Shown here piece by piece: positions 2,788 through 11,369 of a stretch of 64,000 nucleotides of DNA; positions within the stretch are counted from its first letter, which is position 1; each line of letters begins with the position of its first letter. The position numbers and the translations under genes were made by a program. The stretch spans positions 124,001-188,000 of the forward strand of contig PMYL01000054.1 of assembly GCA_003170825.1 (NCBI GenBank). The letters run 5' to 3'. The DNA is from Acidobacteriaceae bacterium. Lineage in GTDB: Bacteria > Acidobacteriota > Terriglobia > Terriglobales > Acidobacteriaceae. The notes beneath the pieces are model-generated. The model was given only the letters and a program-made list of their open reading frames with translations. It searched no databases and was not told where the DNA came from.

Positions 2788-4500
2788 TCAGGAGCCCGTT
2801 TTCAGGTTGCTCAGAGTCCGGCTGGCTACGTCGGAACTGATGGCCCAGACAAAGAGTCCGAAATAGTCGCTGAAGGGGTTCGCTCCAAATGTCGCATTCT
2901 TCAGGTAGAGCTGTTGCAAACCCGTTGCGCATAGAGCCAGCACCAACAGTATGAACACCAAGGGGCGCATCAGCCAGAGTGTGACTTGCGCGCGAATCGC
3001 TTCTGCCGCTCCGGTCAATTTGGAGAGAAACACTCCAAACAGAGGAGGCTTCCGCAATTTCGCCGGTTGCAGTCCGTCGCTGGCTATTTCCTTGGCTCTA
3101 TCCGCTTGGGATTTGGCAGTCGAGAACAACGCCCTCTGCGGAGTGGCCGCGGCGACGGCTGCGGTATGGAGATTGGCCACGTTAGTCTGAATTAAGGTGA
3201 CCGCAGCCTCAGCCGCCGCATCCTGCCTTGCTTCAATAAGCTGGCGGACCGGGGGAATTCTGTTCAGAATTGCCAAAACGGCAGCGTCTGCACTTTGGGG
3301 GGTCAACGTGGTTTCGAGGATGCGCAGCGTGTTCAAGAGCTGCCAGCGGTTCTGGATGGCGGCCAGATTGGTCTTGGCGTCATCAAGCTGCTCGGAGTAG
3401 ATATCCAATTTGAGATCCGCGAGCGCGGGTTGGAGAAGGGCCAGATCCGGCGGCGAAGACGCAATCCTGCTTTCCAATTGATAGAACGCCAGCAGTAAAT
3501 CGGATTGAGCGTTTCCCTTGTCCTGCAAATATTTCAGCAGCCTTCCCAAACCTATGCCCGCCACCAGCGCGAGCAGAGGAAGCAGCGGCCCGGACTTCAC
3601 ATTCACGTCCAGGGGCACCGTTGTTAAGAGCTTGTCTGCGGAGTAAAAGTTGATACTGCCGACGTAATGATCGGCAACTGGAGAGGCGGCGAAGGTTAAG
3701 GGGACATTGACGAACTTGGACTGAACGTCGACGTTTTGAGCGGTTGAATCGCCTGTTTTGAGGGCATCTCCCAGGATTTGCCGGTTCGTTACGCCCCGCG
3801 CTTGAAGGGCTCCATTCATGCTGAACGATTCGCGGCTGCCGTTTATCAGACAGACAGACTGAGAGTTCCCTTGAGAGCCGAGCCGCGATGCGAGAACGGC
3901 TTCCGGCTGGATGAAACCGGCAATTAGGCATCCGACGCAGGAACACTTCACGAATTGAAGCGTGATGGAATCGGAGCCTTTGCAGAGTGTCACGGCGGGA
4001 TCGGAATGCACGGTCAACTCAATGGGGACCGTAACTGCCGGTTTTAGCCCTTTCCCTGGGACAAAGAAATGCAGTTCTCCGGTGTAAGTGCCGGGATCCT
4101 TCACGCCAGTAATCTTGACGGCGACGTCCTTCGGAGTGTCGGCATCCAGATCGAACACCGCTGTAAGAGCAAGCGCGACCTGCCGGGTTTGAATAAGGGG
4201 CTGCCGCTGATCGCCTTTCAAGACACCGGACTGCATGTAGATTTTATGAACCGCGCTGCCCGCAATGAGCTCAACTGTCCCAACAAAGCTTGTATCGTCT
4301 CCCAGCTTAGCCGGGATCTCGACAAGCGGTCCCCCGACCTGCTCTATCTTGAGCGGTTTGGTTTCCTCGCCCTGCTTTGTTTCGGGGGTTTTGGCGTCCG
4401 GCGCTGGTGCTGCAGACCCCTGTGCATGCGCAAAATGAAGGTGCGCCAGCAGGAGGAGGTATGCGAAGACGCATGCGAAAAGCGCTGTTTTGTTTCGCAT
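2788..4500 (-). CDS. Secreted/membrane-anchored protein of unknown function
   Basis: 570 aa, N-terminal signal peptide MRNKTALFACVFAYLLLLAHLHFAHAQ, C-terminal hydrophobic segments. Confidence 0.7.
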   Translation of the reverse strand: MRNKTALFACVFAYLLLLAHLHFAHAQGSAAPAPDAKTPETKQGEETKPLKIEQVGGPLVEIPAKLGDDTSFVGTVELIAGSAVHKIYMQSGVLKGDQRQPLIQTRQVALALTAVFDLDADTPKDVAVKITGVKDPGTYTGELHFFVPGKGLKPAVTVPIELTVHSDPAVTLCKGSDSITLQFVKCSCVGCLIAGFIQPEAVLASRLGSQGNSQSVCLINGSRESFSMNGALQARGVTNRQILGDALKTGDSTAQNVDVQSKFVNVPLTFAASPVADHYVGSINFYSADKLLTTVPLDVNVKSGPLLPLLALVAGIGLGRLLKYLQDKGNAQSDLLLAFYQLESRIASSPPDLALLQPALADLKLDIYSEQLDDAKTNLAAIQNRWQLLNTLRILETTLTPQSADAAVLAILNRIPPVRQLIEARQDAAAEAAVTLIQTNVANLHTAAVAAATPQRALFSTAKSQADRAKEIASDGLQPAKLRKPPLFGVFLSKLTGAAEAIRAQVTLWLMRPLVFILLVLALCATGLQQLYLKNATFGANPFSDYFGLFVWAISSDVASRTLSNLKTGS

Positions 4501-6956: not shown

Positions 6957-7553
6957 TTAAATCCAGATGCGTAGGAGCGATGCTACACCCAAAGCATACA
7001 GGCCTGCCGCCACGTCATCGAAGACGATGCCCCAGCCTTCGGGGAGGCTTTCAAGCTGGCGGGCGGGAAAGGGCTTGGTGATATCGAAGAGACGGAAGAG
7101 GATGAGAGCGATGAGGGCGTGTCGCCAGTCGGTTGGGCTGAAGAGCAGAGCGATCCATTGGCCGGCGACCTCGTCGATGACGACGAAGCCGGGGTCGTGG
7201 CGGCCGGATTCGCGGGCAACGATGGTGGCGGCGGGGATGCCGAGGACGAGTGTGAGGGCGATGCCGGCCAGGAGGACGAGGAGAAGGGTGTGGGGCGTGG
7301 GGTGGAGGGCGAAGGCGTAGGCGGCCCAGAGGAGGACGGCGGCGACAGAGCCCCAGGTGCCGGGGCCGGGCTTGCCGAAGCCTGCGCCGAAAAAGGTGGC
7401 GACGGCCCACCATTGCATGGAGCGGCCCTTTTGGACGGGAGTCGTGGAAGGAGGGTCAGTCGTCATGGGAGTCTCCGCTTTGGCCGCCGCTGAGGCCTCC
7501 GAGGTCTTCGAGGACTTCGGGGTCGAGGACGGGGGAGCTGATTTTGTAGACAC
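6957..7553 (-). CDS. pgpA: Phosphatidylglycerophosphatase A
   Basis: FFGAGFGKPGPGTWGSVAAVLLW...DPGFVVIDEVAGQWIALL...FRLFDITKPFPARQLESLPEGWGIVFDDVAAG; true start probably at internal MTTDPPS. Confidence 0.9.
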   Translation of the reverse strand: MSTKSAPPSSTPKSSKTSEASAAAKAETPMTTDPPSTTPVQKGRSMQWWAVATFFGAGFGKPGPGTWGSVAAVLLWAAYAFALHPTPHTLLLVLLAGIALTLVLGIPAATIVARESGRHDPGFVVIDEVAGQWIALLFSPTDWRHALIALILFRLFDITKPFPARQLESLPEGWGIVFDDVAAGLYALGVASLLRIWI

Positions 7554-7686
7554 CCATGGCCCACTTGCCGAGGTCGATCTTGCGGCAGCGGTCCGAGCAG
7601 AAGGGGAAGTCCTCGTCTTTGATTCGAACGAGCATACCGCAGGTGGGGCAGTGGTGGAGCTTTACGGATTTTTTCTTTGGAGGCAT
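7456..7686 (-). CDS. yacG: YacG-like zinc-binding protein
   Basis: 76 aa; HHCPTCGMLV...FPFCSDRCRKIDLGKWAMGVYKI. Confidence 0.9.
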   Translation of the reverse strand: MPPKKKSVKLHHCPTCGMLVRIKDEDFPFCSDRCRKIDLGKWAMGVYKISSPVLDPEVLEDLGGLSGGQSGDSHDD

Positions 7687-7716
7687 CGGACTATTTCATT
7701 TTACAGCGGGTCCACT

Positions 7717-9372
7717 TTACAGCGGGCCGGAGAGGACGCGGGCGACTACGTCGTACTCGTGGGCTTCTGTGATCTGGGCGCGGTAGAAGCGGCTGGGTTC
7801 CAGGGCGGCCAGGTCGCCGAAGTCGTTGATGTAGACTTTGCCGTCGATTTCGGGGGCGTGGAACTGGGTACGGCCTTCCCAGAGGAGCGGGGTCTCTTCG
7901 CTTTCACCTTCGGCGAGAAGGACCAGCTCGCGGCCGACCCACTGCTGCTTGGCGCGCCTGGAGATGGATTGCTGAAGCTTCATGAGGCGGCGCTTGCGGG
8001 CTTCGATGGTGCGTTTGGGGACCTTGGCGTCGAGTGAGTGGGCGGCGGAGCCTTCTTCGTCGGAGTAGCTGAAGACGCCGAGCCAATCGAATCTTGCCTC
8101 GCCGATGAACTCCTCCAAAAGTTCAAAGTCGCGGAGCGACTCGCCGGGGAAGCCGACGATGAAGGAGGTGCGGAGGGCGATTCCGGGGACGGCGGCGCGG
8201 ACTTTTTCGAGGGTCTTGAGGAAGAGGTCGGCGCCTGCGCCGCGCTTCATGCGCTTGAGGACAGCGGGCGAGGCGTGCTGGAGTGGAACGTCGAGATATT
8301 TGCAGATGTTGTCATGGCGGGCGATGGTCGAGAGCAGGCGGCCGGTGATGCGGTTGGGGTAGGCGTAGAGGAAGCGGAGCCAGCGGAGGCCTTCGATGCG
8401 GGCGAGCGAGTCGAGGAGGGTGGCGAGGCCGTCCTTGAGGCCGAGGTCTTCACCGTAGCAGGTGGTGTCCTGGCCGATGAGGGTGATCTCCCGGACGCCG
8501 CGGGCGACGAGCTGTTGGGCTTCGGCGACGACCGACTCGAAGCGGCGGGAGCGGAACTTGCCGCGCAGGTTGGGGATGACGCAGAAGGTGCAAGGGTGGT
8601 CGCAGCCCTCGGCGATCTTGATGTAAGCCGAGGATCTGGGGGTGGTGAGGACCCGTGGGGTCTTTTCATCGTAGAGATACGTGGGCAAGAGATGAGCTGC
8701 GCCCTGCCAGTCGTCGCGGCGGAAGCGGCCCTGCTTCTCGCGAAGGTTGCCTTCGGGGCGGGAACCGGCGGGCCGACTTACGGAAGAGCTTCCCTCAGGG
8801 GCTAAAGCCCACGTCGATTTTGCAGGCCTCACGGCACGACTAAAGTCGTGCCCTGACACAAAGCCAGATCTTTCCGCAACGTGCTTATGTGTGCCGGCTT
8901 GGGATTCCTGGCCTTCGCGGGCTTCGAGGGCCGTGCTGGTTTCGGCGGCTTTGCCCGAGAGGATGGTGAAGGGAGACGAGGACGGTGCAGCCGCGATGGG
9001 CGCAAGTCCGGCGGCATCGAGGATGGATTCGAGTTCGCCGGCGCCGACGACGGCGTCGACTTCGGGGATGCTTTTGCGGATTTCATCGCGGTAGCGCTCG
9101 ACGAGGCAGCCGGCGACGATGAGCTTTTTGGCCGAGCCGGAGGTCTTGTAGCGGGCCATTTCGAGAATGGTGTCGACGGACTCCTGCCTGGCGGCGTCAA
9201 TGAAGCTGCAGGTATTGACGATGAGGATTTCGGCCTCTTGGGGATGGGCGGTGAGGCGCGCGCCGGCGCGGTCGAGCAGGCCCATCATGACCTCGGAGTC
9301 GACGAGGTTTTTGGGGCAGCCTAATGAAATAAAGCCCACGGAAGGGGCCGTGGGTGGGGAATTCTTAGTCAC
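7717..9372 (-). CDS. rimO: Ribosomal protein S12 methylthiotransferase RimO, with in-frame insertion
   Basis: 551 aa; FISLGCPKNLVDSEVMMG, radical SAM CDHPCTFCVIPNLRGKFRSR; extra residues about 141-228 include a repeat-derived peptide. Confidence 0.95.
   Translation of the reverse strand: MTKNSPPTAPSVGFISLGCPKNLVDSEVMMGLLDRAGARLTAHPQEAEILIVNTCSFIDAARQESVDTILEMARYKTSGSAKKLIVAGCLVERYRDEIRKSIPEVDAVVGAGELESILDAAGLAPIAAAPSSSPFTILSGKAAETSTALEAREGQESQAGTHKHVAERSGFVSGHDFSRAVRPAKSTWALAPEGSSSVSRPAGSRPEGNLREKQGRFRRDDWQGAAHLLPTYLYDEKTPRVLTTPRSSAYIKIAEGCDHPCTFCVIPNLRGKFRSRRFESVVAEAQQLVARGVREITLIGQDTTCYGEDLGLKDGLATLLDSLARIEGLRWLRFLYAYPNRITGRLLSTIARHDNICKYLDVPLQHASPAVLKRMKRGAGADLFLKTLEKVRAAVPGIALRTSFIVGFPGESLRDFELLEEFIGEARFDWLGVFSYSDEEGSAAHSLDAKVPKRTIEARKRRLMKLQQSISRRAKQQWVGRELVLLAEGESEETPLLWEGRTQFHAPEIDGKVYINDFGDLAALEPSRFYRAQITEAHEYDVVARVLSGPL
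8792..8864. repeat. REP-like palindromic element inside rimO
   Basis: GGGCTAAAGCCC followed by GGCACGACTAAAGTCGTGCC (8833-8852), two adjacent near-perfect palindromes; translated in frame as SGHDFSRAVRPAKSTWALAPEG. Confidence 0.8.
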
Positions 9373-9450
9373 AGTTCCATTGTAGCTGGAAGTGCGCCGC
9401 GACAGCTTCGATTCCGGGCGAGCGTCAGTTCGCCGCCAAGTGAGTGACTG

Positions 9451-10311
9451 TTACCTCTTGCCCTTGATGGGCAAGCCGGCGGTGATAAGAATCCCCTTGG
9501 CGTCATTGGCGAACTGGCCTTTCGGTTCCAGTTCCAAATACTTCTGGTAAGCCTCGGCGCATCCGGGCGGAAGAATCATCTTATGCGTCTGGGGATCGAC
9601 GGAGACTTTGGAGACAAGCGCCTGGCCCTTGAAGTAGTAAAGCATGGCGCGGCCAGGATCGACGGCGATGGCCTTCTCGACCGCCTCCAACTGGGCCTCC
9701 GCATTGCCAACCTGAAAGAAGAAGATGGTTTCATTGCGCCGATAGAGGGCGGCATCACTTGGAAACGCCTTGACCGCGGTGTCGTAGGCCGCCTCAGCCT
9801 CGGCGATTCTGCCGGTGCGGGCGTAAATCTCTCCGAGGCTGCTGTAGGCAACGCCCTGAATCTCCGGGGTGCGGACTTGGGCGTTGGTGACCGTTCCACC
9901 CAGGGTATTGCGGGAATTGCGGGTGGCGGAGGGGGCGACGACACCGCGGGCGTCAGGCTGCTTCTGAAAGAAGTCGTCGGCATTTGCCAGCTTCAGGGAG
10001 GCCGGATCGATGCCCAGCGCAATCTTGAAGCTGTTTTCGGCTTCGGCGTATTTCTTCAGGCCGATTTGCGCCAGGCCCAGTTCGACCCAGGGAAGGATTG
10101 CCTCGGGTTGGGAGGCGGTCGCCTTGAGCATCAGCGCCTCGGAGTCGGCATAGCGCTTTTCCCTGGTGGCGGCGCGGGCCGCAGACAGTTCGGCGTTCAC
10201 GCTATCGTCGGTTTTCTTGCCGGCGTCCGGTGCGGGCGAGCCTTCCTGCCCGTAGGCGGACCAGGTCATAGAGAACAAGAGGGCCATGCAGAACCAAAAA
10301 TTGCGTTTCAC
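9451..10311 (-). CDS. TPR-repeat secreted protein
   Basis: GTG start giving VKRNFWFCMALLFSMTWSAYGQ signal peptide; TPR-like helices AEAEAAYDTAVKAFPSDAALYR. Confidence 0.8.
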   Translation of the reverse strand: MKRNFWFCMALLFSMTWSAYGQEGSPAPDAGKKTDDSVNAELSAARAATREKRYADSEALMLKATASQPEAILPWVELGLAQIGLKKYAEAENSFKIALGIDPASLKLANADDFFQKQPDARGVVAPSATRNSRNTLGGTVTNAQVRTPEIQGVAYSSLGEIYARTGRIAEAEAAYDTAVKAFPSDAALYRRNETIFFFQVGNAEAQLEAVEKAIAVDPGRAMLYYFKGQALVSKVSVDPQTHKMILPPGCAEAYQKYLELEPKGQFANDAKGILITAGLPIKGKR

Positions 10312-10422
10312 GTTTGCGCCTTCAGATGAGGAGTAGAGCTTTCCAACAGCAAGTGTACTCCGGCGGCTGCACGGCTCCATCGCCGCCAGCTAAGCGATCC
10401 CATTTGCCCAACAAACAGAAGG

Positions 10423-10474
10423 CCCACGGAAGGGGCCTTGGGTGGGGATGGTTTGGTCACAATTTTATTGTAGC
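10423..10474 (-). pseudogene. Partial copy of the rimO 5' end
   Basis: Ungapped 52 bp match to 9335-9386 (about 83% by eye), encoding VTKPSPPKAPSVGL versus RimO MTKNSPPTAPSVGF. Confidence 0.5.
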
Positions 10475-10571
10475 GGGGATGGAAATGGAGCGTTGGATTG
10501 GGGTTCGTGGTTTCCCGCCCATGCGCCAGAAAAAAGACGCATGGATGGGGCACGGAGCGATTATGTACCAA

Positions 10572-11369
10572 CTATCTATTCACGGGACTTTTCCCTTTGC
10601 TTAACCGCACACTTGACGAAAGCGGGGTACCTGAGATTTCTGCCGGGTCGTACGCTCTCATCGTTTGTACAGAACCAGCTTTAATGTACTCTCCATTTCG
10701 CCACAAATACTCCGTGATGACATATCGGTGCAAGCACCATTCACACTCGAATTCCGCTGAATTCGGATTATTGGCATTCCTCCCCGTCAACACTGATGAA
10801 CGGCCCCACAATTCAAGTTTGAGAATCCCAAATTCCATGCGCCCTTGCCCGACCATTCGTTTAAATACCACGCGATAGTCACCCGATTGCCATTTGATGA
10901 TGGCGAAAGCTGACCCAGTGCCATCGAAGGCTGTTGAGAGTGCAATAGCAAACGCCTTTTGGTTCCTCGCGAGGTCAAATTGGCAACTTGACAAATAACG
11001 CTCGAAGCCGCCGCCACGAGGCGCAAAATCACTCCCATTGAACAACTTCACAAGATGCCCGGCAACCAGGAACGCCACCTTGGGATGCGGGTCGGAAGCA
11101 TCGGAATCGCTGTCGTAGATGACGATTCTTTCGCCGGAAGGGGCGAGGTTCGTATTGAGCACGCGCCGGACTTCGTGAAAATCTAGCAATTGCGCACGAA
11201 TGTCAGCGGCAAGTAAGACTGGCGGTACAGCATGGTTCTCTGCTCCAAATGCGCCGATGATTCGGGGCGAAATGTCGCAATCCGATGCCGATGCTTCGCA
11301 TCTTTGCAGTAGGCATGTCTGAGACGCGACTAGCAATGCAGCCAGTAGCCAAAACCAATGTTGCTTCAT
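10572..11369 (-). CDS. Exported protein of unknown function
   Basis: 265 aa with N-terminal hydrophobic segment and lower GC than neighbours. Confidence 0.6.
   Translation of the reverse strand: MKQHWFWLLAALLVASQTCLLQRCEASASDCDISPRIIGAFGAENHAVPPVLLAADIRAQLLDFHEVRRVLNTNLAPSGERIVIYDSDSDASDPHPKVAFLVAGHLVKLFNGSDFAPRGGGFERYLSSCQFDLARNQKAFAIALSTAFDGTGSAFAIIKWQSGDYRVVFKRMVGQGRMEFGILKLELWGRSSVLTGRNANNPNSAEFECEWCLHRYVITEYLWRNGEYIKAGSVQTMRAYDPAEISGTPLSSSVRLSKGKSPVNR

What the first reader, a model, noticed from the sequence alone, without database searches (positions are those of the whole stretch)
8690..8952. REP-like palindromic element translated in frame within rimO
RimO carries roughly 88 extra residues between its N-terminal domain and the radical SAM domain. 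Part of it (about 8792-8864) consists of two palindromes, GGGCTAAAGCCC and GGCACGACTAAAGTCGTGCC, read as SGHDFSRAVRPAKSTWALAPEG. The ORF stays open, so an intergenic-type repeat seems to have become a protein linker in a conserved tRNA/ribosome-modification enzyme family.
Basis: partly seen in the sequence, partly recalled or inferred. Interest (0 to 1): 0.6.

Follow-up and report, generated by a model that had tools for sequence, protein, structure and literature searches.

The report
Mobile palindromic repeat translated inside RimO
A short mobile hairpin repeat found in dozens of copies across this soil acidobacterium's genome has inserted in frame into the floppy linker of the ribosome-modifying enzyme RimO, and the same kind of repeat sits in frame in linkers of other housekeeping enzymes here and in related species; the phenomenon is known from Rickettsia and a few other bacteria, but I found no report of it in this phylum.

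Summary
Confirmed, and larger than described. Both palindromes (8799-8810, 8833-8852) lie inside the only rimO gene (7717-9372, minus) and are translated. The ~95-bp element has about 50 other BLAST matches in the 3.49-Mb genome, occurs in all 23 same-genus genomes shown, and in none of 14 genomes of a sister family. RimO's long linker has two layers: ~50 residues shared by the genus, and ~32-40 residues from the element. Seven of 30 same-genus RimOs carry such an element at the same point, all in one orientation and frame; sister species G004 (empty) and G010 (filled) show the insertion directly (net 111 bp, 37 codons). The same genome carries in-frame copies in LpxB, RsmB, TilS, HpnI, CarB, a YycJ-like hydrolase and a UvrC-like protein. 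Of 167 scorable copies, 13 lie inside coding sequence and all 13 keep the frame open. One REP-type tyrosine transposase gene (RAYT) here, and seven in relatives, are flanked by inverted copies. Best reading: a RAYT-linked REP family that inserts widely and survives in genes only where in frame in tolerant linkers. Precedents: Rickettsia palindromic elements, intragenic GTAG/CGTC REPs. New member of that kind in Acidobacteriota, with recurrent landing sites. Mobilisation and enzyme activity are inferred.

The parts
7717..9372 (-). rimO, 30S ribosomal protein S12 methylthiotransferase (551 aa), single copy, GTG start
   Evidence: TIGR01125 473 bits; UPF0004, Radical_SAM and TRAM_2 domains; one match in the genome
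8761..9012 (-). inter-domain linker (aa 121-204), predicted disordered; holds a genus-specific extension plus the element
   Evidence: no secondary structure, block-mean pLDDT 25-45; motif distances
8761..8880 (-). stretch between conserved THKH and RPEG (40 codons); same-genus RimOs without an element that were read have 1-9 residues between THK and RPEG
8780..8878 (+). full palindromic element, with imperfect terminal inverted repeats ACGGAAGAGC (8780-8789) and GATCTTTCCGC (8867-8877)
   Evidence: alignment of copies; nhmmer match 8784-8875, 82.7 bits
8799..8810 (.). palindrome 1, GGGCTAAAGCCC
8833..8852 (.). palindrome 2, GGCACGACTAAAGTCGTGCC

Best explanation
The insert is a copy of a lineage-specific, REP-type mobile repeat: two different hairpins inside an inverted CTCAGGG...CCCTGA frame, ~70-bp core, ~95 bp with ends. 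The family is linked to, and probably mobilised by, a REP-associated tyrosine transposase (RAYT). Copies insert widely. Those that break genes are lost, and those that keep the frame and carry no stop survive where a flexible inter-domain linker tolerates 30-40 extra residues. In RimO the element landed in a disordered linker between the UPF0004 and radical-SAM domains and is translated antisense as (GFV)SGHDFSRAVRPAKSTWALAPEG. RimO most likely stays functional and the peptide is a neutral passenger. Shown: repeat family, in-frame coding, empty/filled sites, recurrence at the same linkers, RAYT flanked by copies. Inferred: RAYT does the moving, RimO is active, the peptide has no function.
For: About 50 further matches in the genome and 66 nhmmer matches in the fetched regions, with a common consensus. 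Present in 23 of 23 same-genus genomes shown, 0 of 14 of a sister family; all 80 named records listed from 84,980 species are Acidobacteriota. RimO: 7 of 30 same-genus genomes carry an element match (E<=1e-5), all antisense and in the same frame; at least 5 changes of state on the tree. Sister species G004/G010: 121 bp in place of 10 bp, net 111 = 37 codons. Other in-frame cases in the same genome: LpxB, RsmB, TilS, CarB, HpnI, YycJ-like, UvrC-like, a DNA methyltransferase-like ORF, absent from most relatives where compared. 13 of 13 copies inside coding sequence are open and in frame, although a non-coding copy is open in only ~30% of frames on average. RAYT (NF047646, 101.7 bits against cut-off 80) is flanked by inverted copies, as are RAYTs in G001, G012, G013, G014, G015, G017 and G024. 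RimO keeps C18, C54, C88 and C256-x3-C260-x2-C263; the linker is predicted unstructured.
Against: No transposition was observed, and no target-site duplication or excision product was found. Most RAYTs examined are not flanked by this element. G000 and G010 RimO share a nearly identical 5' junction (CAC/CAT then T-TTGCGGAA), so part of the RimO pattern may be one old insertion that was later altered or lost, not separate events. Some copies sit inside other MITE-like terminal repeats, so another transposase may help move them. No expression or activity data.
Confidence: 0.82

Rival explanations
1. The repeat was moved as cargo of DDE-transposase MITEs; RAYT linkage is incidental.
For: Several copies lie within longer inverted ends such as AGGAACCTCTGATTAAGTT..., CTAGGAACTTGTTGAAA..., CAGGCTGCGGAAAA...; the window copy itself has imperfect ends ACGGAAGAGC / GATCTTTCCGC.
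Against: The core occurs with at least three unrelated outer ends and also without them, and RAYT genes in eight genomes are bounded by inverted copies at similar distances.
Confidence: 0.15
2. One ancestral insertion in the RimO linker, altered by gene conversion and lost in many lineages, explains all carriers.
For: All seven carriers have the same orientation and frame; G000 and G010 share the 5' junction.
Against: Hairpin subtypes differ even between sisters G001 and G009; G004, sister of G010, has a clean short linker; parsimony needs at least 5 changes; in rsmB of sisters G004/G010 and in lpxB of G000/G010/G018 the orientations differ.
Confidence: 0.25
3. The inserted peptide or mRNA hairpin has a selected function in RimO (regulation of translation, a binding tag, RNA processing).
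For: Recurrence at the same linker in several species; strong hairpins (fold z about -3.4).
Against: The majority of same-genus RimOs lack it; sequence, subtype and length vary freely; similar insertions occur in unrelated enzymes in both orientations and more than one frame; no terminator-like signal and no Rfam match.
Confidence: 0.08
4. Assembly artefact or pseudogene.
For: Draft genome of 59 contigs.
Against: The same kind of insertion is found in separately assembled genomes; the frame is open over 551 codons with motifs intact; codon signal is coding on both sides.
Confidence: 0.02

Closest known systems
Rickettsia palindromic elements (RPE; Ogata et al. 2000, 2002, as reviewed in PMC10969869)
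   Same: Short palindromic mobile repeats inserted in frame in many unrelated housekeeping genes, read as extra residues in tolerated positions
   Different: Unrelated host phylum, free-living soil lineage; here a RAYT gene flanked by copies is present; most copies here are non-coding
Intragenic GTAG/CGTC REPs (Di Nocera et al. 2013, PMC3733652)
   Same: REP dimers encoding 20-30 aa inside known proteins, including repair and tRNA-modification genes; one case (recB of two Xanthomonas) of different REPs at about the same site
   Different: No GTAG or CGTC tag here; a different family in Acidobacteriota; recurrent use of the same linker in several enzymes and species
TIRYT/TIRtrons (PMC3733652), including a group from T. 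saanensis, K. versatilis, A. capsulatum and G. mallensis
   Same: RAYT-like tyrosine transposases of Acidobacteria flanked by inverted repeats that can be members of a repeat family
   Different: Identity with those terminal repeats was not tested here; intragenic copies were not mentioned for Acidobacteria in the main text read
REPINs (PMC3116915)
   Same: Two hairpins in inverted arrangement, dispersed, linked to a RAYT
   Different: The two hairpins here differ in sequence and length

Membership tests
RimO (S12 methylthiotransferase) | TIGR01125 above cut-off; UPF0004, radical SAM and TRAM domains; cluster cysteines | tested here: met
   473.4 bits against 357; PF00919, PF04055, PF18693; C18/C54/C88 and C256/C260/C263
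RimO (S12 methylthiotransferase) | methylthiolates S12 Asp89 | not testable with these tools
   needs mass spectrometry
REP elements (general) | short, dispersed, high-copy palindromes, mostly outside genes | tested here: met
   13 of 167 scorable copies have coding sequence on both flanks, against about 40% of random positions
REP elements (general) | association with a RAYT gene | tested here: met
   (a subset of RAYTs)
GTAG/CGTC REP superfamilies | GTAG or CGTC tag at the foot of the palindrome | tested here: not met
   consensus CCCTCAGGGGCTAAAGCCC...GGCACGACTGAAGTCGTGCCCTGACA
REPIN/BIME | two REPs in inverted orientation forming one unit | tested here: inconclusive
   outer CTCAGGG/CCCTGA are inverted, but the two hairpins differ
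Rickettsia palindromic elements | in-frame insertion in unrelated coding genes | tested here: met
Rickettsia palindromic elements | sequence homology to an RPE family | not tested
   no RPE sequences were compared; the 80 listed named hits are Acidobacteriota only
MITE | terminal inverted repeats with target-site duplication | tested here: inconclusive
   imperfect terminal repeats seen; no duplication evident in the G004/G010 pair, where 121 bp replaces 10 bp

The most novel reading that the evidence does not exclude
A fixed set of inter-domain linkers in housekeeping enzymes (RimO, LpxB, RsmB, CarB, HpnI, TilS) acts as recurrent landing pads for RAYT-linked repeats across a bacterial genus, either by target choice of the transposase or because the inserted peptides are useful, so that protein linkers are continually re-made from mobile DNA.
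Probability: 0.15. Interest if true: 0.75.

Novelty: new member of a known kind. Interest (0 to 1): 0.52.

Why it matters
It extends protein-coding palindromic elements to a free-living, abundant soil phylum with many genomes, and pairs them with flanked RAYT genes and with sister species that have empty and filled sites. That makes an old question testable: are such insertions random and merely tolerated, or targeted and useful? It also warns annotators that GHDFSRA/GFSP...ALAPEG segments in acidobacterial proteins are likely to be translated repeats rather than domains.

Tried and rejected
Rfam scan of 7000-11000: nothing. Phage and plasmid collections: no match. Terminator or promoter in the element: none found. 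The idea that the element evolved to be stop-free: rejected, since non-coding copies are open in 6-52% of cases per frame, mean ~30%, against ~47% in shuffles. Two of the three Y1 transposase genes in the genome were not seen to be flanked by the element. The AlphaFold model is of modest quality (mean pLDDT 58.9, 26 sequences) and was used only for the disorder of the linker and for the fold match to RimO 4jc0. ORFs with copies in L053, L056, L057 and L063 were set aside as probably not genes. The ArgS copy (L069:4632-4714) is at the extreme N-terminus and may lie before the true start.

Full report
What is there. The window lies in a 3.49-Mb draft genome (G000). Its GTDB genus appears to include Occallatibacter savannae, because contig 1 of relative G009 has the same length (1,733,497) as the named O. 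savannae record (inference), i.e. Acidobacteriaceae, Terriglobia. The minus-strand ORF 7717-9372 is rimO, single copy. Two palindromes lie at 8799-8810 and 8833-8852 and are translated as (GFV)SGHDFSRAVRPAKSTWALAPEG.

A repeat family. A search of the genome with 8690-8952 gave 51 matches, all except the query itself limited to the element. In the fetched regions nhmmer finds 66 matches. The consensus is TCAGGGGCTAAAGCCCGCGTTGATTTTGCGGCATTTACGGCACGACTGAAGTCGTGCCCTGACA, and many copies extend to TTCC at one side and TTTTTCCGCA at the other. Matches occur in all 23 same-genus genomes shown and in none of 14 genomes of another family of the order. RNA and DNA folding is stronger than shuffles (z about -3.4).

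The RimO linker. The distance between the N-terminal motif and the radical-SAM motif is 134-159 residues in six genomes of other families, 184-203 in same-genus RimOs without a detected element and 234 here. Thus the long linker is a genus-level extension of about 50 residues plus an element insertion of about 32-40. Between the conserved THK and RPEG, relatives without the element have 1-9 residues in the examples read, the window has 41. An element HMM finds matches in 7 of 30 same-genus rimO genes (G000, G001, G009, G010, G016, G018, G028), all antisense, all in the same frame. G004 and G010 are sisters on a five-gene tree. G004 has ACAAACA-CGATCACGGC-TCCCGCCCCGAAGG, while G010 has 121 bp in place of the middle 10 bp, net 37 codons. 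Parsimony gives at least five changes for rimO, three for lpxB, two each for tilS and carB, one for rsmB. The linker is predicted disordered, and the model matches T. maritima RimO 4jc0.

Not only rimO. In the same genome, in-frame copies lie in LpxB, RsmB, TilS, HpnI, CarB, a YycJ-like metallo-hydrolase, a UvrC-like protein and a DNA methyltransferase-like ORF (names). Relatives mostly lack them, and when they have an insertion it tends to be at the same point: LpxB in G010 (two elements, opposite orientations) and G018 (sense), RsmB in G004 (sense), G010 and G016 (antisense), TilS in G003, CarB in G015, HpnI in G004. The opposite orientations in the sister species G004 and G010 at rsmB, and the empty lpxB of G004, speak for repeated insertion or replacement at the same place.

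Filter, not targeting of frame. A codon-usage test on 167 scorable copies (from G000 and 80 named loci) found 13 with coding sequence on both flanks; all 13 are in one continuous open frame, none out of frame or stopped. One of the 13 (L069:2714-2769) is a weak match. If insertion were blind and unselected, frame preservation alone would be about 1/3 per event (6e-7 for 13 of 13), or less when stops are counted (one search gives both numbers; 1/3 and 1/6 are assumptions). Random positions in the same loci fall in coding sequence about 40% of the time against 8% for the copies, so genes are strongly avoided overall. Limits: broken genes decay and can escape the test, and the named loci were chosen by an exact hairpin match, which favours young copies.

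Mobiliser. One of three RAYT-like genes in the genome (L058, about 3130-3590, minus; NF047646 101.7 bits) is flanked by copies in inverted orientation. So are the best RAYTs of G001, G012, G013, G014, G015, G017 and G024; the other RAYT loci examined are not. This is the arrangement described as REPtron or TIRtron in PMC3733652. That RAYT moves the element is inferred.

Known kinds. In-frame palindromic inserts are known in Rickettsia (reviewed in PMC10969869) and as intragenic GTAG/CGTC REPs in several species (PMC3733652), where one pair of recB genes also has different REPs at about the same site. The present family lacks the GTAG/CGTC tags, is from Acidobacteriota, and reuses the same linkers in several enzymes. 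The literature searches, limited to open-licence papers, found no report for Acidobacteriota. I therefore call it a new member of a known kind, with the recurrent landing sites as its unusual feature.

Noticed in passing
window 10308-10571 (minus) and 9329-9388: The stretch around 10419-10475 resembles the start of rimO (TKPSPPKAPSVG against TKNSPPTAPSVG, with similar upstream DNA), as if a fragment of the rimO 5' end had been duplicated about 1.1 kb upstream.
   Followed up: no
G000:C23:45502-48513 and loci of G001, G012, G014, G015, G017: A RAYT gene lies next to carB in at least six species, suggesting long vertical residence of this transposase at one locus (coordinates).
   Followed up: partly
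L052, L064, L067, L068, L070 and others: Several copies of the element sit inside longer MITE-like inverted ends (AGGAACCTCTGATTAAGTT, CTAGGAACTTGTTGAAA, CAGGCTGCGGAAAA), suggesting nested or composite small mobile elements.
   Followed up: partly
window 8761-9012: The genus-wide part of the RimO linker has a conserved G.ES.AGTHK...RPEG motif; RPEG resembles the LAPEG end of the translated element and could be a fossil of an older insertion.
   Followed up: no
L043:8611-8798: A DNA methyltransferase-like ORF (872 aa) carries two consecutive in-frame copies of the element.
   Followed up: no
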